Source: Subtercola boreus (GTDB lineage: Bacteria; Actinomycetota; Actinomycetes; Actinomycetales; Microbacteriaceae). Taken from it: a stretch of DNA of 64,000 nucleotides. The notes beneath the pieces are model-generated. The model was not told where the DNA came from, ran no database searches, and saw nothing but the letters and a program-made list of their open reading frames with translations. The position numbers were made by a program, and so were the translations under genes. The DNA lies in contig NZ_NBXA01000034.1 in the NCBI RefSeq assembly GCF_003399625.1, positions 1 through 64,000 on the forward strand. The letters are read 5' to 3'. Below are positions 3,572-38,598 of the stretch, one piece after another (within the stretch, counting starts at the first letter, position 1; every line of letters begins with the position of its first letter).

Positions 3572-3603
3572 AGGGGTCTCCTCAGGGTCAGTGCGGGCGG
3601 CTG

Positions 3604-6245: not shown

Positions 6246-6417
6246 CGTTGTCCAATCGGCTAGGGGTGCGGGACTGCCTCCAGCCTGACGGGCATCCAGT
6301 GCCCCAGCCAGTGCCGGAGTGGCTTCGCTTCCGGATGCCGGCGCCACTGTGGCACCTGTCGGGAGGAGAGGCCACCAGCCGGCCAGGACGCCGGAATTCG
6401 CACCCCCCTGCTCCCGA

Positions 6418-11316: not shown

Positions 11317-13050
11317 TCACGCCGCCGGCGGTCCCTGCGGCGCGAGCGGGGGCGTGAGGGGCGGTGAGTGACGCAACGGACACAGCTGCTCGAATGCCGC
11401 CGCGACCCGGAGCAACTCGACATCGGAGTAGGCCGCACCCGCGAAGGTGAGCCCGACGGGCATCCGGATGTCGCTCATCAGCCCCATCGGAACGGTGACG
11501 GTCGGGATGCCGAGGTGCCGAATCGCGAGGTTGCCGTTGGCCACCCAGACACCGTTCCGCCACCCGGCGGCGGCAGAGTCGGCGTTCACATCCATGTCCG
11601 CTCTGCCGACATCCGCCACCGCAGGAAAGATCACTGCGGCCAGATCGAGGCTCTCGAGCCACTGGTCGACGTCGAGTCGCCGGGTCTCCTCCAGCCCCCG
11701 TGCTCCGTTCTCGATCTCGGGGATGTCGGTGAAGTCGCCGTGCGGGTGCGTCCGCACGAAGTCGGGATACGCCGGCAGGTCGTCGTCGAAGCCCTCGTAC
11801 CGGTCCGGCAGGGCACCGGGCGGCGGGGGGAAGATCTGCCGACCATCCACCGCGGCGAGGGAGTGGAGGGCGGGATCCCCGTTCGCGTTCAGGAAGTCCT
11901 CCCACGCCCAGGCGGAGAGGTCGAGGATCTCCCGTGCCAGAAAGGCTTCGGTCACGAGCCCCCGCGTGCCGATCGTCGGCGCGCCCGCGCGGTCGCCCTC
12001 GTAGTTCGTGACCGCCGGGAAGTCCACCTCGACGACCGTCGCACCGGCCTCTTCGAGCGCGGCACGAGCCTGTTCGAACAGGCGCAGGCTGCTCGGCCGG
12101 GGCTCGATCCGGCTCCCGGTGGGCCCGCCGATCGTTCCGCCCGAGCCTGCCTCTGAGTCGGTGCCGAGGTACATCCGGGGCACCCCGAACCGCAGCCCGG
12201 CGAGCACGGCACGCGCCTCGTCGGGCCCGGCCGGCTCCAGCGCCCGGAACGACGCCGGGCGGATGCTCGAGGCCGACGGCAGCGCGACCCACGGTTGTGC
12301 CCGCCAGAAGTCGCCGCGCACCTCGTCGTCGTCGACGACGATCACATCGAGCACCTCGAACAGATCCGCCAGCGTCCGGGTGTGCGGCACGACGACATCC
12401 ATCGTCGGCACCAGCGGCCAGTTCCCCCGCAACGAGATCAGTCCACGGGACGGCGTGTAGGCGCACAGCGCGTTGTTCGACGCCGGGGCCCTGCCGCTTG
12501 ACCAGGTCTCCTCCCCCAGACCGAAGGAGGCGAAACTCGCCGCGGTAGCCGTACCCGAGCCGTTGGACGAGCCCGACGCGAACGCGGCCGTCAGGAACTC
12601 CGGGTTGTAGGGGCTCTCGGCACGGCCGTACAGTCCGCGCTGCATCCCACCGGCGGCCATCGGCGGCATATTGGTGAGCCCGAGGCAGATCGCCCCCGCA
12701 TCCCGGAGCCGTTCGATGGCGAAGGCGTCGCGGGTGGCTGTGAGTCCTGCGAACGCAGGGCTCCCGGCGGCCGCGGTCAGACCCGTGACCAGGTAGCTGT
12801 CCTTCGCTGTGTAGGGGATGCCGTCGAGCGGCCCGAGAACGGAGCCGCCGCGCCGCCGCGCATCAGCGGCCCGTGCTTCGTCGAGAGCGTCGGGATTCGG
12901 CACGACGATACTGTTCAGGCGCGGACCGCCACGATCGTAGGCGGCGATGCGCGCGAGGTACGCCTCGACGAGACCGACGCTGGTCGCATCCCCCGATTCG
13001 AGGGCATGCCTCAGCGCAGCGATGGGGGCCTCTGTGACGTCGATGCTCAT
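11317..13050 (-). CDS. Amidase (amidase-signature family)
   Basis: A 577-residue amidase-signature enzyme hydrolysing an amide to acid and ammonia. The Ser-cisSer-Lys triad can be located: Lys in PYTAKDSYL (about residue 88), the cis-serine in ASGSSNGSGTATAASFASFG and the nucleophile in EETWSSGRAPASNN. The catalytic core is followed by a long variable C-terminal half. It overlaps the upstream agmatine-deiminase-like gene by 4 bp and so closes a long operon. In that setting an N-carbamoyl or amide product of the preceding step is a possible substrate, although N-carbamoylputrescine is normally cleaved by an unrelated nitrilase-type enzyme. Confidence 0.85.
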   Translation of the reverse strand: MSIDVTEAPIAALRHALESGDATSVGLVEAYLARIAAYDRGGPRLNSIVVPNPDALDEARAADARRRGGSVLGPLDGIPYTAKDSYLVTGLTAAAGSPAFAGLTATRDAFAIERLRDAGAICLGLTNMPPMAAGGMQRGLYGRAESPYNPEFLTAAFASGSSNGSGTATAASFASFGLGEETWSSGRAPASNNALCAYTPSRGLISLRGNWPLVPTMDVVVPHTRTLADLFEVLDVIVVDDDEVRGDFWRAQPWVALPSASSIRPASFRALEPAGPDEARAVLAGLRFGVPRMYLGTDSEAGSGGTIGGPTGSRIEPRPSSLRLFEQARAALEEAGATVVEVDFPAVTNYEGDRAGAPTIGTRGLVTEAFLAREILDLSAWAWEDFLNANGDPALHSLAAVDGRQIFPPPPGALPDRYEGFDDDLPAYPDFVRTHPHGDFTDIPEIENGARGLEETRRLDVDQWLESLDLAAVIFPAVADVGRADMDVNADSAAAGWRNGVWVANGNLAIRHLGIPTVTVPMGLMSDIRMPVGLTFAGAAYSDVELLRVAAAFEQLCPLRHSPPLTPPLAPQGPPAA

Positions 13051-14084
13051 CTCGGCCCCACAGCGGGCTGCTGCTGGGTGATGCAGTGGATGCCTCCGCC
13101 GCGGGCGAAGAGCTCACGGGCATCCACCGTCACGACCTCCCTGCCCGGGTAGGCGTCCTGCAGAATGCGGGCCGCCCGCGTATCGGCCGTCTCATCACCG
13201 AAACCGCAGGCGATGACGCCCCCGTTGACCACCAGATGGTTGATGTAGCTGTAGTCGACATATCCATGGGCATCGCGGAGAACGGCCGGTGCGGGCACCT
13301 CGACGACCGTGAACTGCCGACCGGCCGCATCGCTCTGCTGGGAAATGGCTTCGCGGATGCCCTTCATCACCTCATGGTCCGGATGCGCTGAGTCGGGCTG
13401 GGCGTGCAAAAGCATCGTGCCGGGGGTGGGGATCGCGGCGACGATGTCGACGTGGCCCTTGGTGCCGAAGTCGTCGTAGTCGCGCGTCAGCCCCCGAGGA
13501 AGCCAGACCGTGCGGGTCGCGCCGATGGTGCGTTCGAGTTCGTCCTCGATCCGTCGGCGGTCTGCGTAAGGGTTCCTCCGGGGGTCGAGCTGCACCGTCT
13601 GCGTGGCGAGCACAGTCCCCTCCCCGTCGACGTGGATACCGCCGCCCTCGTTCACCATCAGCGAGCTGACGACCTCCGCCCCTGTCAGGTCGGCGACCAG
13701 TCGTGCATGCTGGGCGGCCTTCTCCCAGTCCGACCACTCGGGGTCGCCCCACCCGTTGAAGATCCAGTCGACCGCGCCGAGAACACCCGGGCGCGCGGAG
13801 TCCGTCACGAACGTCGGCCCGGAGTCCCGCAGCCAGAATTCGTCGATCGGGGCCTCGTGCTGCGTGATCGCTCCGTCGAGCAGCCGACGGGCCCGGCTGC
13901 TCTCGGTCGGGTCGACAAGGATCGAGACCGACTCGAACTGGGCGACGGTGTTCGCCACCGCCGCCCAGGCCTCATAGCCGGCCTCCCGCTCGGCGACCGT
14001 GTCACCGAGCGTCTGGCCCTCCCTCGGGAACGCCATCCAGGTTCTGTCATGGCGCACACTCTCAGCGGGCATCTGCCAGTTCAT
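13047..14084 (-). CDS. aguA: Agmatine deiminase family protein
   Basis: A 345-residue guanidino-group-modifying enzyme of the peptidyl-arginine-deiminase-like family. Agmatine deiminases convert agmatine to N-carbamoylputrescine and ammonia. Visible motifs are WMAFPREGQTL near the N-terminus, DEFWLRDSGPTF (substrate-binding Asp), NEGGGIHVDGEGT, KGHVDIVAAIPTPGTM with the catalytic His, and the C-terminal nucleophile Cys in GGGIHCITQQQPA. Length is close to the usual 340-370. It sits 31 bp after the aldehyde dehydrogenase and overlaps the amidase. Specificity for agmatine is probable but other guanidino amines are possible. Confidence 0.8.
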   Translation of the reverse strand: MNWQMPAESVRHDRTWMAFPREGQTLGDTVAEREAGYEAWAAVANTVAQFESVSILVDPTESSRARRLLDGAITQHEAPIDEFWLRDSGPTFVTDSARPGVLGAVDWIFNGWGDPEWSDWEKAAQHARLVADLTGAEVVSSLMVNEGGGIHVDGEGTVLATQTVQLDPRRNPYADRRRIEDELERTIGATRTVWLPRGLTRDYDDFGTKGHVDIVAAIPTPGTMLLHAQPDSAHPDHEVMKGIREAISQQSDAAGRQFTVVEVPAPAVLRDAHGYVDYSYINHLVVNGGVIACGFGDETADTRAARILQDAYPGREVVTVDARELFARGGGIHCITQQQPAVGPR

Positions 14085-14115: not shown

Positions 14116-15495
14116 TCATGCGATCCGCACCAGTTTCTTGTTGATGAACTCCTCCATCGCGTAGCGACCCAGTTCGCGACCGGATCCCGACCGCTTCACC
14201 CCGCCGAACGGAAGTTCGGCCGCGTCGCCGAGAACGAGGTTGATCCAGACCATCCCGGCGTCGATCGAGTCCGCGACCCGAAGCGCCTGCTCGGCGTCGG
14301 TCGTGTACACGTAGGAGCCCAGACCGAACGGCGTGTCGTTGGCGAGTTCGACGGCCTCCTGTTCCGTCGAGACGCGGTAGAGCGCCGCGACCGGGCCGAA
14401 GAACTCCTCCCGGTAGGCATCCATCCCGGAGGTGACATCGGTGAGCACGGCGGGCGGGAAGAAGTTACCGCGCGGCTCCCCGGCGAGACGCAGGGTGGCA
14501 CCCTGCTGTTCGGCCCGGCCGAGCTGTTCGGTGAGCCGCCGTGTCGCCGCCTCCGATGACAGCGGGCCGAGCAGGGTGCCCTCAGCGAGGGGGTCTGCCG
14601 GCTGGGCGGCGGCCAGCCCCGCGGTGAACTTCGAGACGAACTCCTCGAAGAGATCGTCGATGACGATGAACCGCTTCGCGCCGTTGCAGGACTGGCCATT
14701 GTTGTCGAGCCGCGCGCTCACCGCGTCGTTCACCGCGGCATCCAGATCATCGGTCGACAACAGGATGAACGGGTCCGACCCGCCGAGCTCGAGCACCACC
14801 TTCTTCAGGTGTCTTCCCGCGATCTCGGCGACGGCCGCGCCGGCGCGCTCCGATCCGGTGACCGAGACACCCTGCACGCGCGCATCACTGATCACGGTCT
14901 CGACCTGCTCGTTGGAGGCGAGGATGTTGACGTAGACGTGTCGGTCCGCGCCCTGCTGGGCGGCGGCGTCGGCGAAGATCTGCGCGATCGCGATCGACGA
15001 TTCGGGGCACTGCGGTGCCGGCTTCAACAGAATCGAGTTGCCCGCCACGATGTTGGGGCCGGCGAACCGTGCGACCTGGTAGAGGGGGAAGTTCCAGGGC
15101 ATGATTCCGAGGAGCGCACCCAGGCCCACCCGTCGAACGAACGCCGAACCCGTTCCGGAGGCGAGAGCGATCGGTTCGTCGGCGAGGAATTCCTCCCCGT
15201 GGTCGGCGTAGTACTCGTAGATCGCGGCGGCGAAGTCGACCTCGCCCAGTGCCTGGTCGAGCGGCTTGCCCATCTCCCGCACGGCGATCCGGGCGAGGGA
15301 TTCGCGCTGCTCGAGGTGCAGCTCGGCCACCCGCCTGATGAGCGCCGCACGCTCACTGACCGGCACACGACGTGACCAGGTGGTCTGTGCATGCGAGGCC
15401 GCCCGGATGGCCTCCTGCAGCTCAGCGTCGGTGATGGTGGGGTACTCGGCGACGATGTTGCCCGATGCCGGGTCGGTGACGGTGTAGAGGGTCAT
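14116..15495 (-). CDS. NAD-dependent aldehyde dehydrogenase (succinate-semialdehyde dehydrogenase-like)
   Basis: A 459-residue aldehyde dehydrogenase of the short GabD/Sad type. Motifs are IMPWNFPLYQVARF, VTGSERAGAAVAEIAG, LELGGSDPFILLS with the general base, NNGQSCNGAKRFIV with the catalytic Cys, and LPFGGVKRSGSGRELG at the end. The ATG at 15493-15495 overlaps the PucR stop; the open frame continues antisense-like upstream but only noncoding-looking sequence. In this operon it is the obvious oxidant for the semialdehyde made by the phospho-lyase-like enzyme encoded at 17760, or by polyamine breakdown. It is distinct from the gabD at 2096. Confidence 0.87.
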   Translation of the reverse strand: MTLYTVTDPASGNIVAEYPTITDAELQEAIRAASHAQTTWSRRVPVSERAALIRRVAELHLEQRESLARIAVREMGKPLDQALGEVDFAAAIYEYYADHGEEFLADEPIALASGTGSAFVRRVGLGALLGIMPWNFPLYQVARFAGPNIVAGNSILLKPAPQCPESSIAIAQIFADAAAQQGADRHVYVNILASNEQVETVISDARVQGVSVTGSERAGAAVAEIAGRHLKKVVLELGGSDPFILLSTDDLDAAVNDAVSARLDNNGQSCNGAKRFIVIDDLFEEFVSKFTAGLAAAQPADPLAEGTLLGPLSSEAATRRLTEQLGRAEQQGATLRLAGEPRGNFFPPAVLTDVTSGMDAYREEFFGPVAALYRVSTEQEAVELANDTPFGLGSYVYTTDAEQALRVADSIDAGMVWINLVLGDAAELPFGGVKRSGSGRELGRYAMEEFINKKLVRIA

Positions 15496-16988
15496 TCGGT
15501 CTCTTTCTTGTCGGTCAGTGCGGTGTTGCCCGTCGAACCGAGCAGCGCCCAGAGCACGGCCCGTCCGTGGAACGTCTCGAGATCGAGACCGGACAGCTCG
15601 GAGAGAGCTGCCATGTGTTGTTTCAGCGTGTGGCGGTGCAGGGTGAGCGCGCGTGCCGCAGGCTCCCACGCACCGTTGTGGTGGAGCCAGACGGCCGCTT
15701 CGCGGAGCAGGTCGTCTCCCTCCGGCGAACGGAGGGTGCTCGCGAGAGACAGCCGCGCGATCTCCGACACCCGGGATTCGGCGAGCAGACCCAGGATCGA
15801 CTTCGAGGTGAGTTCGGTGAACGTCAGGATGCTCTCCGGTGACGCTTCCGCCGACGCGACAGCGGCCTGCCCCAGGGCATCGGACAACTGCGTCCACCGT
15901 TCGGCGCCGGCCAGTCCAGCGCCGAGGCGTGCCTGCCTGAGGCGGGTCGTCACCATTTCGGTGTGGCGCCGGTCCACCAGAACGACCAGGTCGGAGCGGT
16001 ATTCCAGGGTGAAGAGCCGCTCGCCCCTGACCGCCAACCGTTCGATGGAATCCCGCACCTGGGGCGGCAGTCCGCGAAGGGGCAGGACGACCACATCGAA
16101 CGGCTCCTCCGGCAGTCGCACGCGGTGCGGCGCCAGAGCACCACGCACAACCTCGGTGCGACCGTCGACCAGGAGTTCGAAGAGCCGCTGGGCGACGGAC
16201 CGGAAACCCAGTCGCTCGTCGGCTGCATGTTCGAGCGACAGTTCGGTGAGGGCGCTCAACATGGTGAGAACGGAGCATTCCGGCTCGCTGAGCGGCGCGG
16301 GCCGCGTGACGACGAGAGCGCCGAGCAGGCGACCCGACGCCCCCAGGGTGTGGGCCGCCCAGAAGCCTGCCGGCCCTTCTCCACGATCCCTCGCCCGCAC
16401 CCCCCGGGTGAGCAGTCGGAGGGCGTGGGCATCCACACCACCGGAGACGGAACCGTGCACGATGCGGCCGTCGGGGTCGAGAATTGCGAGGTCGCAACCG
16501 ATCGCGAGGGCTGATGCCCGAACTGCTGCCACCAGCCCTCCCGAGCCGAGAACGGCCTTCGAGATGCTGTCCTGGGTCGACAGTGCCCACTCGAGCTGTT
16601 CGCGGGCCGCCGCGGCGATACCGTCGGCGACGAACTTGCTCACCGCGATGAACGGGGTCGCGTAGGGCACCTGCACGAGCGTCAGGTGAGCGTCGGTGCA
16701 CGCGCGGTGGAGTTCGGCAGGGGTGCCCGATCGCACGACCTCGGTTCCGAAGCCGAGGGCCACCACGCCGACGTTCTGCAGACGGCCGACGTAGCGTTCG
16801 TAGTCTTCAGCCGAGGTGAACGAACCGAACTGACGCCCGGTGGTCAACAGCATCTGGCCCGCCTCGAGGAAGGGGCTCGGGTCGTCGAGGTCGGATGAAT
16901 GCACCCAGCCGATGGGGGTGTCGGTGTAGAGCTCGGTCAGCGGCGTGATCCCCAGTGGCGCGTGGCCCACCAACCGACTGACGTTCAT
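15492..16988 (-). CDS. PucR family transcriptional regulator
   Basis: A 498-residue regulator. The N-terminal PucR sensor domain is clear (IGWVHSSDLDDPSPFLEAGQ then MLLTTGRQF), a central GGDEF-like region follows, and the C-terminal helix-turn-helix reads WLHHNGAWEPAARALTLHRH then TLKQHMAAL. PucR proteins usually activate purine, amine or amino-acid catabolic genes in response to substrate. I start at ATG 16986-16988, which aligns with the family start. GTG at 17073-17075, 7 bases after the gntR stop, would add 29 residues but includes rare ATA/TTG codons. It overlaps the dehydrogenase gene and probably controls this operon. Confidence 0.82.
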   Translation of the reverse strand: MNVSRLVGHAPLGITPLTELYTDTPIGWVHSSDLDDPSPFLEAGQMLLTTGRQFGSFTSAEDYERYVGRLQNVGVVALGFGTEVVRSGTPAELHRACTDAHLTLVQVPYATPFIAVSKFVADGIAAAAREQLEWALSTQDSISKAVLGSGGLVAAVRASALAIGCDLAILDPDGRIVHGSVSGGVDAHALRLLTRGVRARDRGEGPAGFWAAHTLGASGRLLGALVVTRPAPLSEPECSVLTMLSALTELSLEHAADERLGFRSVAQRLFELLVDGRTEVVRGALAPHRVRLPEEPFDVVVLPLRGLPPQVRDSIERLAVRGERLFTLEYRSDLVVLVDRRHTEMVTTRLRQARLGAGLAGAERWTQLSDALGQAAVASAEASPESILTFTELTSKSILGLLAESRVSEIARLSLASTLRSPEGDDLLREAAVWLHHNGAWEPAARALTLHRHTLKQHMAALSELSGLDLETFHGRAVLWALLGSTGNTALTDKKETE

Positions 16989-17082
16989 GACCCGATGGTC
17001 CACCACGGGGCCCCCGTCCGCATCCGCCGATTCGGCACGTTCGGTTCGGAATTCTGCCAATATGTCATGGCTCACAGTATCG

Positions 17083-17766
17083 CTAAGGCGACGACGCGGC
17101 GCTGGACGCCCGCGGTGAATCGGCACTGGAAGCGATCACCTTCAGCAGCTGGTTGTTCACTCGGATGTGCTCACGGACGGCAGCCTCTGCGGCGATGGGG
17201 TCCCGACGGAGAACGGCAGCCGCAATTCGCTCGTGATCGCCCAACACCTCTGAATCGTTCTGTCCGTGCACGACCTCCTGCCGCTGCAGGAGACGGATCG
17301 CGTACGTCATCTCGCCCCGGATACGCTCGAAGAAGTCGTCGATCCGAGCGCTGCCGGAGAGTGCGACGACAGCCGCGTGGAAGGCAACATCAGCACGAGC
17401 GTGACGCGTAGTGTCCTGTCCGTCTGCCGCAGCCCGCCGCAGCTCGAAGAGTGCTGTCTGAACGCTGTCGACAGCAGCCTCGTCGGCATCCACAGAGCGG
17501 CGGGCACCCTCGGACTCGAGCACGGACCGCGCGGCGTAGAGATCATCGATGTCAGCCAGGGAGAACTGGCGTACCCGGGCACCTCGGTTGCGCTCGTGCG
17601 TCACAACCCCCTCGCGGGAGAGCTCGATCAACGCCTCCCTGACCGAGCGGCGCGAGGCACCGAATCGCTCCGCCAGCGGAACCTCCCGGAGCGACTCGCC
17701 CTGGCCGAATCGGAGGTCCAGGATGTCCGACCGGAGGTGATCGGCGATCGCCGTCGGTGTCACCAT
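17083..17766 (-). CDS. GntR family regulator with FCD ligand domain
   Basis: A 227-residue FadR-subfamily regulator. The winged helix occupies about residues 5-68 (LREVPLAERFGASRRSVREAL). The FCD domain shows its metal/ligand residues: an Asp/Arg pair near 85, HARADVAFHAAVVALSGS, and the late histidines in LGDHERIAAAVLRRD and AAVREHIRVNNQLL. FCD regulators bind small carboxylates or amino acids. It overlaps the upstream phospho-lyase-like gene by 7 bp. Two ATTG-N5-CAAT repeats in the promoter at the head of this unit are the likely binding sites. Confidence 0.86.
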   Translation of the reverse strand: MVTPTAIADHLRSDILDLRFGQGESLREVPLAERFGASRRSVREALIELSREGVVTHERNRGARVRQFSLADIDDLYAARSVLESEGARRSVDADEAAVDSVQTALFELRRAAADGQDTTRHARADVAFHAAVVALSGSARIDDFFERIRGEMTYAIRLLQRQEVVHGQNDSEVLGDHERIAAAVLRRDPIAAEAAVREHIRVNNQLLKVIASSADSPRASSAASSP

Positions 17767-19133
17767 CGACCGGCCTCCAGCACAGCGCCCAGCGCATCGA
17801 GCAACCGCTCGGCATGCGAAACGTCGAAGACGAGTGGCGGCCGGATCTTCAGGACGTTGCCGTAACGGCCTGATGCGCTGACAAGGACCCTGCGCTCGCG
17901 CAGGCCGTTCACGACCTGTGAAGCCAGCACCGGATCAGGGGCCGTGGAACCGGCGTTTGCCGGCCGTCTGTGCCGGTCATCCCGCGAGGGATCGACGAAC
18001 TCGACGGCCAGAAACAGCCCTTCCCCCCGCACCTGTCCGATCCGCTGCTCTTCTGAGGCCAGCGTCTCCAGTCCCTGCTTCAGCAGCGATCCGACAGCGG
18101 TTGCCTGCGCGAGCAGGCCCCGTTCTTCGATCTCGTCGAGAACTGCACCGGCCGCAGCGATGCTGACCGGGTTTCCACCGAAGGTATTGAAGTAGCGGAC
18201 ATCACGGCCGAACGCGTCGAACAGGGACTCTCGTCCGACGACGGCCGAGATCGGAATTCCGTTGCCCATCGGCTTTCCGAGCACGACCAGATCCGGTTCG
18301 ACAGCGAGCCGGAGAAAGCCCCACCACTCCGAGCCGAGTCGCCCGAATCCCGGCTGAACCTCGTCGGCAATGTACAGGCCTCCCTCGCGGTGTGCCACGT
18401 CGACCGCATCCCGCAAGAAGTCACTCGGCGACGTCACCAGCCCGTCACTGGACAGAACCGAGTCGACGATGAGGGCAGAGAAGCCCACACCGCGTCGCCG
18501 CAATTCGGCTATCGCCTTCTCGACGCGGTCGGCAAACAGGGTCGCCAGCTCGCCGGGTGCCTCGCGAAGCGGATCGGGCGCCGGGACGGTGACGACATGG
18601 TGCGGAAGAAGATTGTTGGGGCCGAGGCTCGGCGAGATGGCTGCGGCAGACTGAGTCGTCCCGTGGTAGGCGTTCGCCGTGATGACGAGTCCGGTGGCAC
18701 CGGTGGCGTGCGAAGCGATACGAAGTGCGAGGTCGACGGCCTCACTGCCCGTACACGCGTAGATGATCTGGCTGAGGTGCGGCGGGAAGAGGTGGAGCAG
18801 GCGCTCACTGTAATCGACGACGGAATCCGTGAGGTATCTGGTGTGTGTGTTCAACCGACCCAGTTGTCCGGCCACGGCCGCCTGCACCCGTTCATTCGAG
18901 TGACCGACCGCCGGCACGTTGTTGTAGGCATCCAGGTAGTCGAGGTCATCAGCGTCGAAAAGGAGTGCGCCATACCCTCGACTCACCGCGACGGGGCGTT
19001 CGTAGAACAGGCGATAGGGAGCTCCGAGAACCTTCTGACGGCGGGCGATGAGCGCCGCCGCGCGCGGTTCGAGCTCGACCCCGGCCGCCGGATCGAAGCT
19101 GTTGACCATATGCATCGTGTCGGCAGAATCCAT
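17760..19133 (-). CDS. Class III PLP enzyme, ethanolamine-phosphate / phosphohydroxylysine phospho-lyase-like
   Basis: A 457-residue PLP enzyme of the class III aminotransferase fold. The segment RRQKVLGAPYRLFYERPV, the NNVPAVGHSNERVQAAV stretch and LNTHTRYLTDSVVDYSERL resemble the mammalian AGXT2L1/AGXT2L2 ammonio-phospholyases more than ordinary omega-transaminases. PLP residues are TGSEA (128-132), AYHG (155-158), DEVQ (257-260) and Lys287 in VLGKPMGNG. Those enzymes eliminate phosphate and ammonia from phosphoethanolamine or 5-phosphohydroxylysine to give an aldehyde. A kinase of the matching type is encoded divergently at 19218. AGGAGG lies 6 bases before the ATG. A plain transaminase remains the alternative. 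Confidence 0.75.
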   Translation of the reverse strand: MDSADTMHMVNSFDPAAGVELEPRAAALIARRQKVLGAPYRLFYERPVAVSRGYGALLFDADDLDYLDAYNNVPAVGHSNERVQAAVAGQLGRLNTHTRYLTDSVVDYSERLLHLFPPHLSQIIYACTGSEAVDLALRIASHATGATGLVITANAYHGTTQSAAAISPSLGPNNLLPHHVVTVPAPDPLREAPGELATLFADRVEKAIAELRRRGVGFSALIVDSVLSSDGLVTSPSDFLRDAVDVAHREGGLYIADEVQPGFGRLGSEWWGFLRLAVEPDLVVLGKPMGNGIPISAVVGRESLFDAFGRDVRYFNTFGGNPVSIAAAGAVLDEIEERGLLAQATAVGSLLKQGLETLASEEQRIGQVRGEGLFLAVEFVDPSRDDRHRRPANAGSTAPDPVLASQVVNGLRERRVLVSASGRYGNVLKIRPPLVFDVSHAERLLDALGAVLEAGRW

Positions 19134-19146
19134 GGCATCCTCCTAG

Positions 19147-19179
19147 ATTGCTATTCAATACTATATATTGGTGACCAAT
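19147..19179. promoter_or_regulatory. Two ATTG-N5-CAAT inverted repeats in divergent promoter
   Basis: ATTGCTATTCAAT (19147-19159) and ATTGGTGACCAAT (19167-19179) share the 13-bp format ATTG-N5-CAAT and start exactly 20 bp apart. The second is a perfect inverted repeat about a central G. The sequence between also pairs (CAATA at 19156, TATTG at 19166). They occupy the 84-bp divergent gap between the phospho-lyase-like gene and the kinase. The length and the TTGGT/ACCAA core resemble FadR-type GntR sites, so the GntR protein encoded at 17083 is the likely binder. Confidence 0.65.
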
Positions 19180-19217
19180 CCGCGCACTTCTTGCTGTGCG
19201 CGGTCGAGAGGAAATTC

Positions 19218-20288
19218 ATGACCAGCAGAGACGCCAGCGACGGGTCCGCTTCCGATGCAGTGGATCTGTCGACCGAAGCGGTGGCGGCGCTTGTCGCAAC
19301 CCACTACGGATCTGCCATCGGGGAGCTGACCCTTCTCGGCGCCGAGAGCTCCACCGTCTGCCGGGCGCAGGCCATCGACGGCTCCGTGATGGCCGTGAAG
19401 ATCTTCTGGGATCGCGCCGACTCGGCAGAGACGATCCGCTGGCAACATGAGGTCGTCTCGAGACTGGCGGAGTCCGGATTGCCGGTGGCTCGACCGATTC
19501 GAGCCGTGGACGGTGCGCTCACCGCAGTGGGGGAGGTCGATGGACGCCCTGTCCTGCTCCAGGCCTCGGAATGGCTGGTCGGAACCCCTCTCGAAGACGC
19601 TCCACCCACCACCCCCCTCCTGCGCGAGGTCGGGCGAACGGCCGCTCGGCTGCACGGCGCCCTGTTGAGAGAGAAAGCGCCGGCCGGGCTCCCCGTGCAC
19701 GATTGGGAGATCACGCGCTCGCGCTCCACTATCGATGCGGCAGTGAGAGAAATCCGGTACGCCTCCGAGCATCGCTTCCCGACCGCCGAGGGATTCCCTT
19801 CGGTCGAACGCCTGCTTGCCGTCGCCGACGACGTGTGCCGCCTCCTCCGAGACTGCGTCGAACCTCTCTTGGCAACCCTCCCCAGGGCCGTGGTGCACCA
19901 TGACCTGCACGATTCGAACCTGCTCGTCGGCTCGCTTCAGGACCCAGCCAGAGTGGTGGGGATACTCGACTTCGGGGACATGCTCGAGAGCGTACGGATC
20001 TCGGAGCCGATCATCGCGGCAGCGTACGCAGCCCGCAACAGCCGAGAACCCCTTGCCGCAGTGAGGGAGGTGCTCACCGGATGGTCGGAGTCCGTGCCCG
20101 TCACGGCAGCCGAGTCCACGGTCGTTCTTCCGCTGGCCGCTGCGCGACTCACCGCGAACGCCGCCGTCTGGAGTTCGCGACTCGGCTCGTCTCGGGCCGC
20201 GTATGCCGCCGCCCGCATGCGTGGTTCTGTCCGGACAGCCGAACTCCTCCTGCACGGGCTGGACGAGCGGGCTCCCCACCCGGCCTAG
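19218..20288 (+). CDS. Aminoglycoside-phosphotransferase-fold small-molecule kinase
   Basis: A 356-residue APH/choline-kinase-fold kinase. The nucleotide lysine is Lys61 in VMAVKIF, the catalytic loop is HHDLHDSN (227-234) and the metal-binding motif is DFGD (251-254), all intact. It starts at ATG 19218 with GAGAGGAAA upstream. The fold covers choline/ethanolamine kinase, hydroxylysine kinase and homoserine kinase-like enzymes. Its divergence from a phospho-lyase-like gene over shared operators suggests that it phosphorylates an amino alcohol or hydroxy amino acid that the lyase then cleaves. A drug-resistance role is possible but not favoured by context. Confidence 0.75.
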   Translation: MTSRDASDGSASDAVDLSTEAVAALVATHYGSAIGELTLLGAESSTVCRAQAIDGSVMAVKIFWDRADSAETIRWQHEVVSRLAESGLPVARPIRAVDGALTAVGEVDGRPVLLQASEWLVGTPLEDAPPTTPLLREVGRTAARLHGALLREKAPAGLPVHDWEITRSRSTIDAAVREIRYASEHRFPTAEGFPSVERLLAVADDVCRLLRDCVEPLLATLPRAVVHHDLHDSNLLVGSLQDPARVVGILDFGDMLESVRISEPIIAAAYAARNSREPLAAVREVLTGWSESVPVTAAESTVVLPLAAARLTANAAVWSSRLGSSRAAYAAARMRGSVRTAELLLHGLDERAPHPA

Positions 20289-20297
20289 TCTGGAGTC

Positions 20298-21317
20298 GTG
20301 CAAGAACCGGTGACGCTTCAGGACATTGCCGACCGGGTCGGCGTCGCTCGCGGCACCGTGTCTTCGGCCCTCAGCGGGAAGGGCCGCATATCGGCCGAGA
20401 CCAGAGACCGCATCCGCGCGACGGCCGAGGAGCTCGGGTACGTGGCGAATACGGTCGCCCGGAACCTCCGCGTGTCCCGTTCGGGATCCATCGGTCTGCA
20501 CGTGCCCGACGACCCCCTCAGCTACCCGTTCTACATGGCCGTCGTGTACGGAGTGGTGACCAGGGCGCAGGAGGAGGGGATCCTGGTCACCGTCGTACCG
20601 AAGTCCATCAGCAACGACACACGCTTCGAGGATCACCTCGACGGCTTCATCGTCATCGACCCGCACGACGGCGACGAGATGGCAGCCCGACTGCTCCGGG
20701 GTCGGCGACCGGTCGTGAGCGGCGAGGCGCCGCCGGCCGATGTTCCCGCGCCCGCCGCCATCGTGACGTCGGACAACCACGCTGGGGCGACCGAACTGGT
20801 GCGGCATCTCGTCGACCGGGGTGCGCGATCCGTTCTCGGCGTCATCGCCCCGCCGGTTGCCGCGTGGTCGCGGGAGGTCGCCGCGGGCTTCCACCTCGCC
20901 GTCGAAGACTCCGGCATCCGGAGTACGACGATCATCCTCGGCCCCGACGTCGGTCCTGAGCAGATCAGCGAACAGATCGCAGCAGCCGTGACAGACGATG
21001 TGGATGCTGTTCTCTGCGCGGCCGAGGGGACCGCTCTGATCGCCCTGCAGACCCTCACGAAGATGGGCAGACGGGTCGGAGTCGATATTTTGCTGGCGAG
21101 CTGGCCCGACAGCCTCGCCCTCTCTGCCACCATTCCGTCGGTCTCATCCATCGATCTGAGAGCACGCGCCATCGGGGCGGCCTGCGTCGAGGCGTTGATC
21201 GAGGCGATAGAGGAGGCCGCCAACACCTCCGCGAACGCGCCCACCTCGACGAGAACCATCCACGTTCCCTACGAGCTGGTGCTGCGGGATTCGACCCGCC
21301 GACTGACCGGCAGGTGA
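20298..21317 (+). CDS. LacI family transcriptional regulator
   Basis: A 339-residue LacI-type repressor starting at GTG 20298, 9 bp after the kinase stop. The N-terminal helix-turn-helix is textbook (LQDIADRVGVARGTVSSALS), with the hinge helix at about residues 50-60. The periplasmic-binding-like effector domain follows (GSIGLHVPDD, then ATELVRHLVDRGARSVLGV). The LacI-type palindrome 40 bp downstream of its stop lies in front of the permease gene, so it probably represses the permease-amidohydrolase-DUF3237 operon. The effector may be the permease substrate. Confidence 0.88.
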   Translation: MQEPVTLQDIADRVGVARGTVSSALSGKGRISAETRDRIRATAEELGYVANTVARNLRVSRSGSIGLHVPDDPLSYPFYMAVVYGVVTRAQEEGILVTVVPKSISNDTRFEDHLDGFIVIDPHDGDEMAARLLRGRRPVVSGEAPPADVPAPAAIVTSDNHAGATELVRHLVDRGARSVLGVIAPPVAAWSREVAAGFHLAVEDSGIRSTTIILGPDVGPEQISEQIAAAVTDDVDAVLCAAEGTALIALQTLTKMGRRVGVDILLASWPDSLALSATIPSVSSIDLRARAIGAACVEALIEAIEEAANTSANAPTSTRTIHVPYELVLRDSTRRLTGR

Positions 21318-21442: not shown

Positions 21443-22918
21443 ATGCCGACCACCTCCGCGGAATCCCCGACCACGGCGATTCCCGACAGCACCACCGCAC
21501 GCACAGCACTCCGCAGCAACGCTCTCGGAGTCAGTTCCCTCGTCTTCATCGTCATCTCGGCCGCCGCCCCCCTCACGGTCATCGCCGGCATCGGCCCCCT
21601 GGCCATCCTGATCGGCGGCATCGGTGCACCGTTGGCGTACCTGATCGCCGGGCTCGTCCTCGCGATCTTCGCCGTTGCCTTCATGGCGATGACCCGGCAC
21701 ATCAGAGCCCTCGGCGGGTTCTACACGTACATCGCTGAATCGCTCGGCAAGGTTCTGGGTCTCGGAGCCTCGACCCTCGCCTGGTTCTCGTACAACGCGC
21801 TCCAGATCGGGCTCTACGGGCTCTTCGGTGTACAGGCCAATGGGCTGATCAAGATCGTGTCGGGCGTCGATGTGCCCTGGTGGCTGCTCGCCGCGCTCTG
21901 CATCGCGGCCGTCTATGTCGTCGCCTCCCGGGGAGTCGACGTGGGCGCGCGACTGCTCGCGGTCCTCCTTTCGGCCGAGACGCTGATTCTGCTCATCTTC
22001 GCCGTCGCGGTCTTCGCGCAGCACGGCGCAGCCGGCATCACCTTCGGTTCGTTCGACCCCGCCACGCTGATGAACCCAGGGATGCTCGCCATCCTCGGGT
22101 TCGCCTTCGCCGCCTTCATGGGCTTCGAATCGACCGTTCTCTACCGCGCCGAGGCTCGCCGACCCGACATCACCATTCCCCGCGCCACGTACATCTCCGT
22201 CATCTTCATGGGACTGTTCTACGCTTTCATCATCTGGGCGATCATCATCGCGCTGGGTGAAGCGAACGCCGTCGCCGGTGCCGCCGATGACTCCGCGACC
22301 CTCGTCTTCCGGCTGGCCGCCCAGTATCTCGGCCCCTGGGCTGAGATCACCATGTACGTGTTGGTCGTGACGAGCGTCTTCGCAGCCCAGCTCGCGTTTC
22401 ACAACGCCATCAATCGCTACTCCTTCGCTCTGGCACGCGATGGCGTGTTCCCCCGGGCGCTCTTCCGCACCGGTGCGACGACAGGAGCTCCCTGGCCGGC
22501 CGGGCTCGTGCAGACCGTGCTCGCCGCGGTCGTGGTCGGGCTCTTCGCCGCGGTGGGGGCAGACCCCTACCTGCAGCTCGTGCTGTGGGTGAATGGGCCG
22601 GGCGCCATCGGCATCGTTGCTCTGCAGGCCCTGACCTCGGTCGCGGTCGTCGTGTTCTTCGTCCGCCATCGCAACATAGCGCGTGCCTGGTACGTCCTTC
22701 CCGCAGCCGTCCTCAGTGCCCTCGCGATGCTCGCTCTGCTGACGGCCCTCATCGGAACACTCGACCTGCTCACGGCAGCGGGGCCGGTCGTCAACACCAT
22801 CCTCATCTCCGCCGTCACCGCTTCGTTCATCATCGGCGCCGTGCTCGCGTCGGTGTGGCGGCGAACCCGTCCGTCCGTCTACGCCCGCATCGGCGGCACT
22901 GAGGAGATCGCTTCATGA
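21443..22918 (+). CDS. APC family permease
   Basis: A 491-residue membrane transporter of the amino acid-polyamine-organocation superfamily with about 12-14 hydrophobic segments. The first reads VSSLVFIVISAAAPLTVIAG, the region typical for APC substrate binding. AAGGAG lies 7 bases before the ATG. It is the first gene of an operon with an amidohydrolase (ATGA overlap) and a DUF3237 protein, behind a LacI-type operator. It would import an amino acid, amine or amide that the amidohydrolase attacks. Exact substrate cannot be read. Confidence 0.88.
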   Translation: MPTTSAESPTTAIPDSTTARTALRSNALGVSSLVFIVISAAAPLTVIAGIGPLAILIGGIGAPLAYLIAGLVLAIFAVAFMAMTRHIRALGGFYTYIAESLGKVLGLGASTLAWFSYNALQIGLYGLFGVQANGLIKIVSGVDVPWWLLAALCIAAVYVVASRGVDVGARLLAVLLSAETLILLIFAVAVFAQHGAAGITFGSFDPATLMNPGMLAILGFAFAAFMGFESTVLYRAEARRPDITIPRATYISVIFMGLFYAFIIWAIIIALGEANAVAGAADDSATLVFRLAAQYLGPWAEITMYVLVVTSVFAAQLAFHNAINRYSFALARDGVFPRALFRTGATTGAPWPAGLVQTVLAAVVVGLFAAVGADPYLQLVLWVNGPGAIGIVALQALTSVAVVVFFVRHRNIARAWYVLPAAVLSALAMLALLTALIGTLDLLTAAGPVVNTILISAVTASFIIGAVLASVWRRTRPSVYARIGGTEEIAS

Positions 22919-24525
22919 CAACATTCGCACCGGCCGACATCGTCATCTTCGGCTCGATCATCACGCCCGAAACCCTTGCTGGCGGTGCGCGGGCCGGCTA
23001 CGTCGCGGTACGTGACGGAATCATCGTCGGAGTCGGCGAGCGCTCGATGGGCGCCGCCCCCGCAGCATCCGCCAGGCGGGTGATCGACCTCGGATCCGCT
23101 TCCGTGACCTCCGGTCTGGTGGATGCCCACATCCACCCCATTGCCGGCTACGAAATGACGCGTGGTGTCGATCTCACCGGAATCCGCACCTGGGACGGGG
23201 TGCGCGACGCTCTCCGCGCGGAGGTGGCCGAACACCCGGACGGCTGGGTGGCCGGCTGGGGCTTCGACCCGACGGCATTCGAGGGACGCGCCTGGTCGAA
23301 TGACATCCTCGACGGTATCGCGGATGATCGACTGCTGCAGTTCACGTTCTTCGATGCGCACGCCTCGCTCGTGTCGCAGCCCGTTCTGGACCTCGTCGGC
23401 ATCACAGGTGCCGAGACGTTCGCCGACGCCGGTTCGGTCGGACTCCGGCCGTCGGGGAAACCGAGCGGGGTGTTGTACGAGAACTCGGCCCAGGGACTGG
23501 TGCATTCGTTCATCCCCGAGGTGTCGCGCGAGGATCGCGTGGAGGCCCTGCGCACCCTGTTCGACGGCATGGCAGAAACCGGCCTGACCTCCGGCCAGAT
23601 GCTGGACTTCGCCTTGCCCGACAGTCTGGACATCCTCGACGACCTGGAGAACAGCAGCGACCTGTCGATCCGGCTGCGAGTCTCGCCGTGGCTGCAGCCG
23701 GGCGCCGGCCAGGCACGGCTCGAGGAACTGCTTCAGATGCAGGGACGGCACGGCCGACGATGGCACGTGCGCGGGGTGAAGCTGATCATCGACGGAACGA
23801 TCGACAACAGCACGGCCTGGCTGTTCGAACCCGACAGCCAGGGCCGCTCGACCTCGTCGCTCTGGCTCCACCCCGACGAGTACGTCCGGGCGCTCTCGTA
23901 CTTCGACTCCCACGGAGTACCGACGACCACGCATGCCATCGGAGACAAAGGCGTATCGTTCGTGGCCAGGGCGATCCGCGACAACACCGCCGGCGTGCTC
24001 ACCCACCGCATCGAACACATCGAGACTCTCCCCGACGACGTTCTGGCCGAGATCGCGGAATCCCACGCCTCGACGAGCATGCAACCGACCCACTGCACAC
24101 ACTTCGTGCGCGCTGACGGCACCGACAACTGGTCGGAGCGTCTCGGGCCCGAACGGGCAGCGCGAGGATGGCGCATCCGGGACCTGCGCGACAACGGCAT
24201 CACCGTCGCCCTCGGTTCCGACTGGCCGATCGCCCCCTACGACCCGAAAGCGATCATGGTCTCAGCGCGGCTCCGCCGGGTTGCCGGCAGTCCGGAAGCC
24301 GAGCCGGTCGGAGCCGACCAGACGATCTCCGCGGCGCGGGCGCTGGAGGGGTACACGTCACAGTACTGGCAATCGGTGGGCGAGCCGGGTGGTCAGATCG
24401 TCGAGGGCGCTCGCGCCGATCTCGCAGCCTTCGATCGGGATCCTCTCGGCGACGCCGATGCCTTCGCCGAGGCGGCCGTCCTGCTCACGATGATCGACGG
24501 AGAGATCGTGGTCGACCACACATGA
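22915..24525 (+). CDS. YtcJ-like metal-dependent amidohydrolase (Amidohydro_3)
   Basis: A 536-residue amidohydrolase. The metal site is visible: LVDAHIHP (residues about 66-73), a central lysine in GVKLIIDGT, THAIGDKG and HRIEHIE for the metal histidines, and GSDWPIAP for the catalytic aspartate. YtcJ-type enzymes hydrolyse amides or formamides and are cytosolic. It overlaps the permease stop and the DUF3237 start by 4 bp each, so permease, hydrolase and DUF3237 protein are translationally coupled. It is clearly related to the enzyme at 31062 (shared DNWSxRxGPERAAxGWRxRDLRD pattern) and more distantly to that at 25006. Confidence 0.87.
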   Translation: MTTFAPADIVIFGSIITPETLAGGARAGYVAVRDGIIVGVGERSMGAAPAASARRVIDLGSASVTSGLVDAHIHPIAGYEMTRGVDLTGIRTWDGVRDALRAEVAEHPDGWVAGWGFDPTAFEGRAWSNDILDGIADDRLLQFTFFDAHASLVSQPVLDLVGITGAETFADAGSVGLRPSGKPSGVLYENSAQGLVHSFIPEVSREDRVEALRTLFDGMAETGLTSGQMLDFALPDSLDILDDLENSSDLSIRLRVSPWLQPGAGQARLEELLQMQGRHGRRWHVRGVKLIIDGTIDNSTAWLFEPDSQGRSTSSLWLHPDEYVRALSYFDSHGVPTTTHAIGDKGVSFVARAIRDNTAGVLTHRIEHIETLPDDVLAEIAESHASTSMQPTHCTHFVRADGTDNWSERLGPERAARGWRIRDLRDNGITVALGSDWPIAPYDPKAIMVSARLRRVAGSPEAEPVGADQTISAARALEGYTSQYWQSVGEPGGQIVEGARADLAAFDRDPLGDADAFAEAAVLLTMIDGEIVVDHT

Positions 24526-24995
24526 CCCCCACGTCGATGACCGTTCCGCCCGTGCCGTCGCTCACCCGGTGCTTCGACGTGGTGGTGCACCTGGGCCCGA
24601 TCGAGGATCACGGCCCGACGCGGGTCGGTCATCGACGTGTGGTGCCGATCTCCGGCGGTGAGATCACCGGCGACATCGAGGCGACAGTGCTTCCCGGGGG
24701 CGCCGACTGGCAGGTGGTGCGCCCCGACGGCACCGTCGAACTGGATGCGCGCTACTCTGCCAGAACGCGAGGTGGAGGGTTGGTCCTCATCCACGCTGCC
24801 GGCGTTCGAACCGGCACGCCGAAGACACTCCAGGCCCTCCTCGACGGATCGGAGGTCGCCCCGGACTCGTACTACTTCCGCACCCAGATCACGCTCGAAT
24901 GCGCTCACGACCCGGAACTGGAGAGACGACTCTTCATCGGTTCGTGTCTTCGAACGCGAGACGCCGTGCGGTACGTCGCCTACCGGGTCGACTAA
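24522..24995 (+). CDS. DUF3237 domain-containing protein
   Basis: A 157-residue protein of the DUF3237 family, predicted to be a single small beta-rich domain. The pattern GPTRVGHRRVVPISGGEITGD near residue 30 followed by GADWQVVRPDGTVELDARYS is characteristic. Members have no firmly known activity. Its ATG overlaps the amidohydrolase stop (ATGA), so it is part of the permease-amidohydrolase operon and may act on the same substrate or product. It ends 10 bp before the convergent amidohydrolase gene. Confidence 0.8.
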   Translation: MTPTSMTVPPVPSLTRCFDVVVHLGPIEDHGPTRVGHRRVVPISGGEITGDIEATVLPGGADWQVVRPDGTVELDARYSARTRGGGLVLIHAAGVRTGTPKTLQALLDGSEVAPDSYYFRTQITLECAHDPELERRLFIGSCLRTRDAVRYVAYRVD

Positions 24996-34695: not shown

Positions 34696-35496
34696 TCATG
34701 TCGTTCGTGCTTCCTGGATCGTGTTGCCCCCGTCGACGACGATGAGCTGGCCGGTGAGGTACGAGCAGGCCGGGCTGGCGAGGAACGCCACGACGCCGGC
34801 GATCTCGTCGGGTCGCCCGGAACGGCCGACCGGCGTGTTCGTGCCGAATCCGATCTCCTCGTCTGTGGCGGACTCTGTGGCGATCCAGCCGGGGGCGACG
34901 GCGTTGGCGACGATGCCGTGCGGCGCCAACTCGAGGGCGAGCGCTCTGGTCAGGCCCACAAGGCCTGCCTTGGCCGCGTGGTAGGCGACGTCGCCCGCGA
35001 AGGCGGCCACCGGGCCCGAGACGGAGGAGACGGTGACGACGCGCCCGTATCCCCTGCGGGTCATGTCGGCGGCAGCTGCGCGCGAGACCAGGAACGCCGT
35101 CGTGAGGTTCCGTTCGATGCCACTGACCCACTGCTCCACGGTGATGTCGAGAATGCCGGCTTGCTCCTGGGGGCTGTTCGAAGCGGTCATCCCTGCGTTG
35201 TTGACGAGGATGTCCACCCCGCCGAACCGGCGGACCGTCTCCTGCACCAGCAACTCGGCCTGCAGAGGGTCGGTGAGGTCGCCCACGAATGCTCCGCTCC
35301 GGATGCCGCGGCTCTCCAGCTCCGCCTGACGATCGAGCACTCGGGTTCCGTGACCTGCGACGACGACGGCCGCACCCGCCAGACCCAGCGCCACAGCCGA
35401 GGCGAAACCGATCCCGTGCGCGCTCCCCGCTCCGGTCACGATCGCCGTCTGCCCGGCCAGTACTCCCCCGGCGGCAGGCTCCTCCCGGTGCTGCAT
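34696..35496 (-). CDS. SDR family NAD(P)-dependent oxidoreductase
   Basis: A 266-residue classical short-chain dehydrogenase. Cofactor motif [16 protein letters not shown], structural NNAGMTAS, catalytic Ser in VTVSSVSG and YHAAK are all present, and the C-terminal [12 protein letters not shown] is typical. The ATG at 35494-35496 overlaps the stop of the fusion gene; a GTG one codon earlier is also possible. In this operon it could oxidise or reduce the aldehyde or hydroxyl of the pathway intermediate. Confidence 0.88.
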
Positions 35497-38402: not shown

Positions 38403-38598
38403 CTGATGGGTTCCAGCCGATCTGAGTGCGGCGTGAGTATTCCCACCCGTCAAGGCGCAATCATTCCATAATATTCAGTTAAATGCGCAAAATACTAATG
38501 TTTATTTAGACAATCTTCTATTTTGATGCTCCTCAAAACAACTGCCATGTGGCATGATTGCTGCGGATCCGTTATCAGAACGGGCTCTTTTCGACGGA
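38403..38598. promoter_or_regulatory. AT-rich divergent promoter region
   Basis: This gap separates the kinase/lyase operon (leftward) from the amine oxidase gene (rightward). Bases 38460-38540 are strikingly AT-rich for this genome (TAATATTCAG, TTTATTTAGACAATC), as expected for overlapping divergent promoters. Candidate protein sites are CTAA-N7-TTAG around 38496-38510 and TGCCA-TG-TGGCA at 38543-38554. I cannot assign a regulator. Confidence 0.45.

What the first reader, a model, noticed from the sequence alone, without database searches (positions are those of the whole stretch)
17760..20288. Split kinase + phospho-lyase pair over a shared divergent promoter
A class III PLP protein with sequence features of ethanolamine-phosphate/5-phosphohydroxylysine phospho-lyases is transcribed divergently from an APH-fold kinase with all catalytic residues. 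Established knowledge: these two activities act in sequence in hydroxylysine and phosphoethanolamine breakdown (kinase, then ammonio-phospholyase releasing ammonia and phosphate). Inference: this locus is a bacterial pathway kinase -> lyase -> aldehyde dehydrogenase (14116) for an amino alcohol or hydroxy amino acid, with unknown substrate.
Basis: partly seen in the sequence, partly recalled or inferred. Interest (0 to 1): 0.72.

Follow-up and report, generated by a model that had tools for sequence, protein, structure and literature searches.

The report
Amino-alcohol kinase and phospho-lyase gene pair
Two neighbouring genes under one shared switch most likely break down a small amino alcohol by adding a phosphate and then removing phosphate and ammonia; the gene pair is widespread in bacteria, so this is a well-supported new example rather than a new kind of system.

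Summary
17760-19133(-) encodes a class III PLP protein that groups with solved phospho-lyases 5G4I and 6TOR, not with transaminases (support 100/99). The divergent gene, really 19218-20288(+), encodes an APH-fold kinase with intact catalytic residues. The pairing is real: of 80 lyase loci from one capped scan, 68 have an APH kinase within 1 kb, 7 further off, 5 none; of 36 transaminase loci none has one. A palindrome in the 84-bp gap, ATTGGTGACCAAT, occurs once in the 4.12-Mb genome. It recurs before the lyase in 7 of 7 near relatives that keep this FCD-GntR regulator (one with a mismatch), and in 0 of 4 where none was found. The third step is weaker: the aldehyde dehydrogenase at 14116 is in the same gene run, but a 61% relative sits among amine-oxidase/GABA genes. 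The substrate is unknown, likeliest a small amino alcohol. Family-level linkage to agmatine-deiminase-like and GABA genes leaves a hydroxylated polyamine open. A second, fused kinase-lyase lies at 35496-38453.

The parts
17760..19133 (-). class III PLP phospho-lyase (457 aa), PLP lysine K287 by alignment
19218..20288 (+). APH-fold small-molecule kinase (356 aa); start corrected from 18390
19134..19217 (.). 84-bp divergent intergenic region
19167..19179 (.). palindrome ATTGGTGACCAAT, predicted FCD-GntR operator; only exact site of its pattern in the genome
17083..17766 (-). GntR/FCD regulator overlapping the lyase 3' end by 7 nt; third member of the module in several near relatives
15492..17075 (-). 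PucR-type regulator (start uncertain: GTG 17075 or later)
14116..15495 (-). aldehyde dehydrogenase, ATGA overlap with pucR; doubtful third step
13047..14084 (-). agmatine-deiminase-like protein (PAD_porph), below the TIGR03380 cut-off
11317..13050 (-). amidase PRK06565 (NF005127, 921 bits against cut-off 575)
20298..21317 (+). LacI-family regulator, 9 nt after the kinase
21443..22918 (+). APC-type amine/amino acid permease
22915..24525 (+). Amidohydro_3 (YtcJ-like) hydrolase, 4-nt overlap with the permease
24522..24995 (+). DUF3237 protein, 4-nt overlap
35496..38453 (-). second, fused kinase-lyase (PRK06149/NF004800, 1224 bits against cut-off 973), paralogous system

Best explanation
The two genes form an inducible catabolic module for a primary amine that carries a hydroxyl on the neighbouring carbon. 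The kinase phosphorylates the hydroxyl. The PLP lyase forms an aldimine with the amine, takes the alpha proton and eliminates phosphate; the enamine hydrolyses to ammonia and an aldehyde. The aldehyde is then oxidised by an aldehyde dehydrogenase, perhaps the one at 14116. An FCD-GntR protein, encoded directly behind the lyase gene, binds the single palindrome between the two start codons and controls both directions. Shown by computation: family membership, residue conservation, gene pairing, largely parallel descent of kinase and lyase, and the palindrome tracking the regulator. Inferred: the two activities, the order of steps, repression and induction, and the substrate. The likeliest substrate class is a small amino alcohol such as ethanolamine or 1-amino-2-propanol.
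For: Lyase: best PDB sequence matches are two phospho-lyases. In the careful tree, 32 lyase rows including 5G4I, 6TOR and both window lyases form one side of a 100/99 branch against 12 transaminase rows; the 113-row FastTree tree gives 0.97 for the same lyase group of 99. N71, N72, V73, R99, W271, N291 and K429 are shared with 5G4I, 6TOR and the window's fused enzyme, and with 0 of 14 transaminase rows. The AF2 model (pLDDT 92.6) matches 5g4i best (TMt 0.94-0.95, 41-42% identity), then 6tor. Kinase: catalytic residues invariant in the 61 aligned; AF2 model pLDDT 92.5; fold matches include aminopropanol kinase 6ef6 and homoserine kinase 2ppq. Pairing: of 80 loci, 59 same strand directly upstream, 9 divergent within 1 kb, 6 divergent about 1.9 kb away, 1 at 4.3 kb, 5 none; 12 of 14 lyase loci against 0 of 36 control loci. 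Kinase group WIN, L021, L023, L024, L027 largely mirrors the lyase clade. Regulation.
Against: No activity is measured. The window kinase alone finds no solved amino-alcohol kinase by sequence (only hit 6sui at E = 0.03), and in the kinase tree it lies across a long branch from 6EF6. Five of 80 loci show no kinase, and 2 of 14 relatives' loci none. L022 is inside the window's lyase clade, but its kinase is 4.3 kb away and groups elsewhere. ALDH linkage is thin (13 of 80). Whether the phospho-lyase-specific residues touch the substrate phosphate was not tested, since no coordinates were at hand. The family-specific C127 and D230 differ from human ETNPPL (N110, G219), so a different substrate is possible.
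Confidence: 0.8

Rival explanations
1. The pair feeds a hydroxylated polyamine into the putrescine/GABA route. 2-Hydroxyputrescine (or hydroxyagmatine after deimination and amide cleavage) is phosphorylated, and the lyase yields 4-aminobutanal, which ALDH, GabT and GabD carry to succinate.
For: In the window the lyase runs on the same strand with an agmatine-deiminase-like gene and an amidase, with GabT and GluDH- and GabD-like genes (named by eye from sequence) at 2096-6347 and an amine oxidase at 38554. Within the family, lyase and deiminase-like gene lie within 30 kb in 7 of 13 genomes that hold both on one contig, the window included; three of the seven are of one genus. G276 and G120 place a kinase-lyase pair beside PucR, GabT, GabD, a GabD-like ALDH, amine oxidase and the deiminase-like gene. 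Fused kinase-lyase sits between amidase and deiminase-like gene in G021, G110 and G140. Proteobacterial relatives carry PotA-like ABC genes.
Against: Deiminase-like, amidase and amine oxidase genes: 0 of 80 wider lyase loci. Mere presence of lyase and deiminase-like gene in a genome is not associated (25 of 41, expected 21.3, P 0.14). The pairs of G276 and G120 are only 45% identical in the lyase, and their kinases score low on the profile (66-69 bits), like the 6EF6-type kinase of their genus-mate G015, so they are not close kin of the window pair. Three close loci with adjacent GntR (L223, L225, L226) show no such genes. PotA-type ATPases are broad. No source of the substrate is shown.
Confidence: 0.12
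2. 5-Hydroxylysine kinase plus 5-phosphohydroxylysine phospho-lyase, as in mammals.
For: The same two enzyme families act in sequence there (recalled; Veiga-da-Cunha 2012 is cited in PMC8154272 but was not held). The product would feed an ALDH.
Against: No lysine or aminoadipate genes among the neighbours named. D230, an acid in 94% of lyase rows, does not obviously suit a carboxylate-bearing substrate (inference).
Confidence: 0.08
3. The 17760 protein is an ordinary omega-transaminase that happens to lie near a kinase.
For: Same fold and Pfam family as GabT. Where the listed plasmid relatives carry an annotation, it is an aminotransferase name.
Against: Tree, residue set and pairing with control.
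Confidence: 0.03

Closest known systems
A1RDF1 phospholyase of Arthrobacter aurescens TC1 (PDB 5G4I/5G4J)
   Same: same fold and residue set, 41-42% identity in the structural alignment, same strongly supported side of the tree
   Different: a separate sub-branch with L018 and L020 (100/100), whose neighbouring kinases fall in the 6EF6 half of the kinase tree; C127/D230 in the window, N118/E224 in 5G4I
Human ethanolamine-phosphate phospho-lyase ETNPPL (PDB 6TOR) and PHYKPL
   Same: ETNPPL: same family and diagnostic residues
   Different: eukaryotic; some family-specific positions differ (C127, D230).
RMM/Aut microcompartment pathway with (S)-1-amino-2-propanol kinase (PDB 6EF6)
   Same: APH kinase, class III PLP protein, ALDH, permease and GntR in one locus (PMC6620236, passages read). 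Mallette and Kimber 2018, recalled and not held, reported the kinase commonly associated with a candidate phospholyase and fused to it in rhizobia
   Different: no shell protein PF00936 in this genome; window kinase lies in the other half of the kinase tree; no SDR in the two gene runs (the SDR at 34696 belongs with the fused enzyme)
PRK06148/PRK06149 fused kinase-lyase proteins
   Same: window lyase and kinase match the two ends of PRK06148 (404 and 113 bits)
   Different: two separate, divergent genes; a PRK06149 fusion over its cut-off exists separately at 35496
PbfA, (R)-1-hydroxy-2-aminoethylphosphonate ammonia-lyase
   Same: class III PLP lyase rather than transaminase (PMC8154272, passages read)
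   Different: window lyase scores 172 bits against its cut-off of 525; PbfA releases water, not phosphate

Membership tests
class III PLP phospho-lyases (ETNPPL / A1RDF1) | Aminotran_3 fold with PLP lysine | tested here: met
   (K287)
class III PLP phospho-lyases (ETNPPL / A1RDF1) | groups with characterised phospho-lyases, apart from transaminases | tested here: met
   100/99, 32 against 12 rows
class III PLP phospho-lyases (ETNPPL / A1RDF1) | residues shared by 5G4I and 6TOR and absent in transaminases | tested here: met
   contact with substrate phosphate itself not tested
class III PLP phospho-lyases (ETNPPL / A1RDF1) | releases phosphate and ammonia from an amino-alcohol phosphate | not testable with these tools
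   needs enzyme assay
APH-fold small-molecule kinases (PF01636) | kinase fold, HxDxxxxN and DFGD motifs | tested here: met
(S)-1-amino-2-propanol kinase clade (6EF6) | grouping with 6EF6 in the kinase tree | tested here: not met
   6EF6 in a 16-row side, window kinase in the 71-row side
RMM/Aut microcompartment | BMC shell proteins (PF00936) | tested here: not met
   0 matches in the genome; 2 of 14 control genomes positive
PRK06148/PRK06149 fused enzymes | kinase and lyase in one polypeptide | tested here: not met
   two separate genes, both below the family cut-offs
kinase/phospho-lyase pair regulated by this FCD-GntR | palindrome in the divergent gap before the lyase wherever this regulator is present | tested here: met
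   8 of 8 (window, L023, L024, L027, G235, G189, G238, G080; G080 with 1 mismatch, G235 with the regulator 9 kb away), 0 of 4 where none was found (L021, L022, G042/L009, G128). Loci with more distant GntR matches (27-33%: L045, L050, L060, L081, L083, L096) have no site

The most novel reading that the evidence does not exclude
The split pair and the fused enzyme of this window are two lines of a hydroxy-polyamine route. A 2-hydroxyputrescine-type substrate, possibly freed from hydroxyagmatine conjugates by the amidase and the deiminase-like enzyme, is phosphorylated and cleaved to 4-aminobutanal, which joins the putrescine/GABA pathway encoded in the same island.
Probability: 0.12. Interest if true: 0.7.

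Novelty: new member of a known kind. Interest (0 to 1): 0.42.

Why it matters
Class III PLP genes are commonly annotated as aminotransferases (as in the listed rows). Here a residue set, a kinase partner and a one-site regulator together predict a different reaction, and residue set and kinase partner recur across several phyla. The bacterial kinase-lyase breakdown of amino alcohols was described biochemically in the 1970s (recalled); the substrates of gene pairs like this one remain, as far as I could see, open. The single-site GntR operator gives a cheap way to find the inducer, and so the substrate. Two kinase lineages paired with one lyase family, plus a fused version in the same window, make substrate assignment directly testable.

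Tried and rejected
Transaminase reading: rejected by tree, residues and pairing. Kinase as a 6EF6 orthologue: rejected by the kinase tree; the profile search that ranks 6ef6 first used an alignment that includes 6EF6-type mycobacterial kinases, so it says nothing about the window kinase alone. Microcompartment: no PF00936 shell gene. Sigma-70 promoter scan of the gap: one weak hit, on the + strand at 19102-19129, which lies inside the start of the lyase gene; not used. Presence/absence link of the split lyase with the deiminase-like gene: not significant. Its fused counterpart is associated (52 of 60 genomes against 129 of 248 overall, P 1.6e-10), but without correction for relatedness; 4 of the 61 fused-type hits cover only the lyase half. 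Paper searches listed no paper on this locus; only listings were seen except for passages of PMC8154272 and PMC6620236, and most subscription papers are not held.

Weak points in the counts: the kinase profile was built from BLAST hits of the window kinase and fused N-domain in the same loci. A first count there (58 same strand, 11 divergent, 6 far, 5 none) used mechanical ORF starts and misplaced L053, L069 and L100; one search recounts from the aligned lyase start and replaces it. The kinase matches of L077 and L096 are fragments. Control loci L003 and L101 are the same place, so 35 are distinct. Of the 12 transaminase rows, eight match aminotransferase-named NCBIfam models (L006 just under its cut-offs) and the window GabT; L008 matches a 'hypothetical protein' model, L005 none at that E-value, and L064 was not scanned. 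The 14 rows include near-duplicates. The operator pattern was written after seeing the window, L027, L023 and L024; G235, G189, G238, G080 and G128 are the test set. For L021, L022 and G042 the regulator was sought only in the stretch held, not in the genome.
Full report
What is there. The window lies in a 4.12-Mb genome of unnamed origin. The closest named lyase relatives are Actinomycetota: Leucobacter and Microcella (Microbacteriaceae) and Sediminivirga (Brevibacteriaceae). The lyase gene is 17760-19133(-), with ATG behind AGGAGG. The kinase gene is 19218-20288(+), with ATG behind GAGAGGAAATTC. The ORF start at 18390 runs antisense through the lyase and is an artefact. The gap between the start codons is 84 bp.

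Two gene runs leave this gap. On the minus strand: lyase, GntR/FCD (7-nt overlap), PucR, aldehyde dehydrogenase (ATGA overlap with pucR), agmatine-deiminase-like protein (31-nt gap), amidase (4-nt overlap). On the plus strand: kinase, LacI (9-nt gap), APC permease (125-nt gap), amidohydrolase (4-nt overlap), DUF3237 (4-nt overlap).

The PLP protein is a phospho-lyase by family. PDB sequence matches: 5g4i phospholyase 318 bits, 6tor human ethanolamine-phosphate phospho-lyase 263, next GabT 159. A careful tree of 44 rows (12 transaminase-side rows, 32 lyases; labels, with gaps told under Tried and rejected) puts 5G4I, 6TOR, the window lyase and the window's fused enzyme on one side of a 100/99 branch. 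In the 113-row alignment, 35 columns are at least 93% conserved in 99 lyase rows and at most 30% shared by 14 transaminase rows. N71, N72, V73, R99, W271, N291 and K429 are the same in the window lyase, 5G4I, 6TOR and the fused enzyme, and in 0 of 14 transaminases; K287 is the general PLP lysine. The predicted structure (pLDDT 92.6) is closest to 5g4i and then 6tor. Which of these residues hold the substrate phosphate was not tested.

The kinase has the APH fold. Pfam APH 68.6 bits; H227, D229, N234, D251, F252 and D254 are invariant in 61 aligned kinases; model pLDDT 92.5. Fold matches include N-acetylhexosamine kinase, homoserine kinase 2ppq, amicoumacin kinase and aminopropanol kinase 6ef6 (TMt 0.71). 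By sequence alone the window kinase finds no close solved relative (6sui, E = 0.03).

The pairing is conserved. With a kinase profile (built) and distances taken from the aligned lyase start, 59 of 80 have the kinase directly upstream on the same strand, 9 divergent within 1 kb, 6 (all mycobacterial) divergent about 1.9 kb away, 1 (L022) 4.3 kb away, and 5 none (L043, L072, L080, L089, L095). In the window's genome and its relatives, 12 of 14 lyase loci (the window's two included; misses L012, L017) against 0 of 36 transaminase loci (35 distinct places) hold a kinase match. The kinase tree groups the window kinase with L021, L023, L024 and L027 (SH-aLRT 98), which also neighbour the window lyase; L022 is in the lyase group, but its kinase groups elsewhere. 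The two genes are thus largely inherited together. The tree also shows two kinase kinds beside this lyase family: 71 rows with the window kinase, 16 rows with 6EF6 and its mycobacterial and Cellulomonas relatives. L049's kinase matches 6ef6 with 283 bits.

The control region. The gap holds a perfect palindrome ATTGGTGACCAAT at 19167-19179. The pattern ATTGGTNAYCAAT occurs at this one place in the whole genome, with no match to the reversed control pattern. Among 131 loci held at that time it is found only in the window's own loci and in L023, L024 and L027. These carry a GntR gene next to the pair at 38-48% identity; in L023 and L024 the GntR gene lies between kinase and lyase, and L024 has one site before the lyase and one before the kinase. 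As a test, five further genomes of the family were read: G235 (two sites), G189 and G238 (one each) have exact sites in the gap before the lyase and nowhere else; G080 has it with one mismatch; G128 lacks it there and has one match far away. A GntR relative (47-63% identity; in G235 about 9 kb away) is present in the first four and not found in G128 at E <= 1e-30. L021, L022 and G042 (L009, L165), with no GntR match in the stretch held, have no site. So 8 of 8 with this regulator, the window included, have the palindrome, and 0 of 4 without. Loci with more distant GntR matches (27-33%) do not have it. That the GntR binds it and represses is inference.

The aldehyde dehydrogenase. It is in the lyase's gene run, but in the 80 wider loci an ALDH is near in 13 and in none of L021-L024 and L027; the closest family orthologue locus (L222, lyase 75%, kinase 56%) has a GabD-like ALDH 1.5 kb behind the lyase. 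In G026 a 61% relative lies between a fused kinase-lyase and an amine oxidase, GabD, GluDH, GabT row (L161). It is a plausible third step, but its link to amine-oxidase and GABA genes is at least as strong.

The wider island. 35496-38453(-) encodes a fused kinase-lyase (PRK06149, 1224 bits against cut-off 973), overlapping an SDR gene (34696-35499) that is followed by an APC permease ending at 33278. In 248 genomes of the family other than the window's, this fused enzyme co-occurs with the deiminase-like gene (52 of 60; 129 of 248 overall; expected 31.2; P 1.6e-10, not corrected for relatedness); the split lyase does not (25 of 41, P 0.14). Physically, split lyase and deiminase-like gene lie within 30 kb in 7 of 13 genomes that hold both on one contig, the window included, three of the seven from one genus. 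G276 and G120 have lyase, kinase, PucR, GabT, GabD, a GabD-like ALDH, amine oxidase and the deiminase-like gene in one stretch, though their lyases are only 45% identical to the window's and their kinases score like the 6EF6 kind; G069 has the split pair, APC permease, amidohydrolase, fused enzyme and SDR within about 10 kb. G021, G110 and G140 have amidase, fused enzyme and deiminase-like gene in a row. In the 80 wider loci, deiminase-like, amidase and amine oxidase genes were not found (0 of 80), so this association belongs to the family. There, SDR and PotA-like ABC genes are the common neighbours (24 and 25 of 80 by cluster; named from one member each; a stricter search with the window's SDR gives 18).

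Comparison with known systems. Kinase followed by phospho-lyase is established for mammalian hydroxylysine and phosphoethanolamine, and was described biochemically for bacterial amino alcohols in the 1970s (both recalled). [quoted passage not shown] PMC6620236 (passages read) describes the Aut microcompartment cluster with GntR, permease, an 'aminotransferase', ALDH and an APH protein, and proposes an aminotransferase role. Mallette and Kimber 2018 (recalled; not held) identified that APH protein as an aminopropanol kinase often associated with a candidate phospholyase. The present pair works like these, is not a microcompartment system, and its kinase is not of the 6EF6 clade.

Verdict. A well-supported new member of a known kind, with a clear regulator-operator pair and an open substrate. 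The most novel reading left open is a hydroxy-polyamine route into the GABA pathway; it rests on gene neighbourhood alone.

Noticed in passing
window 35496-38453(-), with SDR 34696-35499 and an APC permease from about 34690 down to 33278: A second kinase-lyase system, fused in one 985-aa protein (PRK06149), followed by an SDR and an amine permease; the two systems lie about 16 kb apart. G069 (L231) also has both systems close together.
   Followed up: partly
window 13047-14084(-) and 11317-13050(-): An agmatine-deiminase-like protein scoring 245 bits against a TIGR03380 cut-off of 382, next to amidase PRK06565. The two adjoin in 8 of 20 loci (the window included), so the deiminase substrate may not be agmatine.
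   Followed up: partly
window 2096-6347: GabT with GluDH- and GabD-like genes (named by eye), and an amine oxidase at 38554-40014: the window looks like an amine/GABA catabolic island.
   Followed up: partly
window 22915-24525, 25006-26592, 31062-32741: Three Amidohydro_3 (YtcJ-like) hydrolases in 10 kb; substrates unknown.
   Followed up: no
window 994-2121(+): A protein with the MPAB_Lcp_cat (rubber-oxygenase-like) domain at the left edge of the GABA genes.
   Followed up: no
L029:7936-9297, L022:4699-6051: Histidinol-dehydrogenase family genes (TIGR00069 for L029; the same cluster in 6 of 80 loci) near some kinase-lyase pairs; perhaps an alcohol-oxidising step.
   Followed up: no
L019:403-2763: A 786-aa ORF with kinase and lyase matches, shorter than PRK06149 and so perhaps a fusion without its central part, in a same-order relative.
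   Followed up: no
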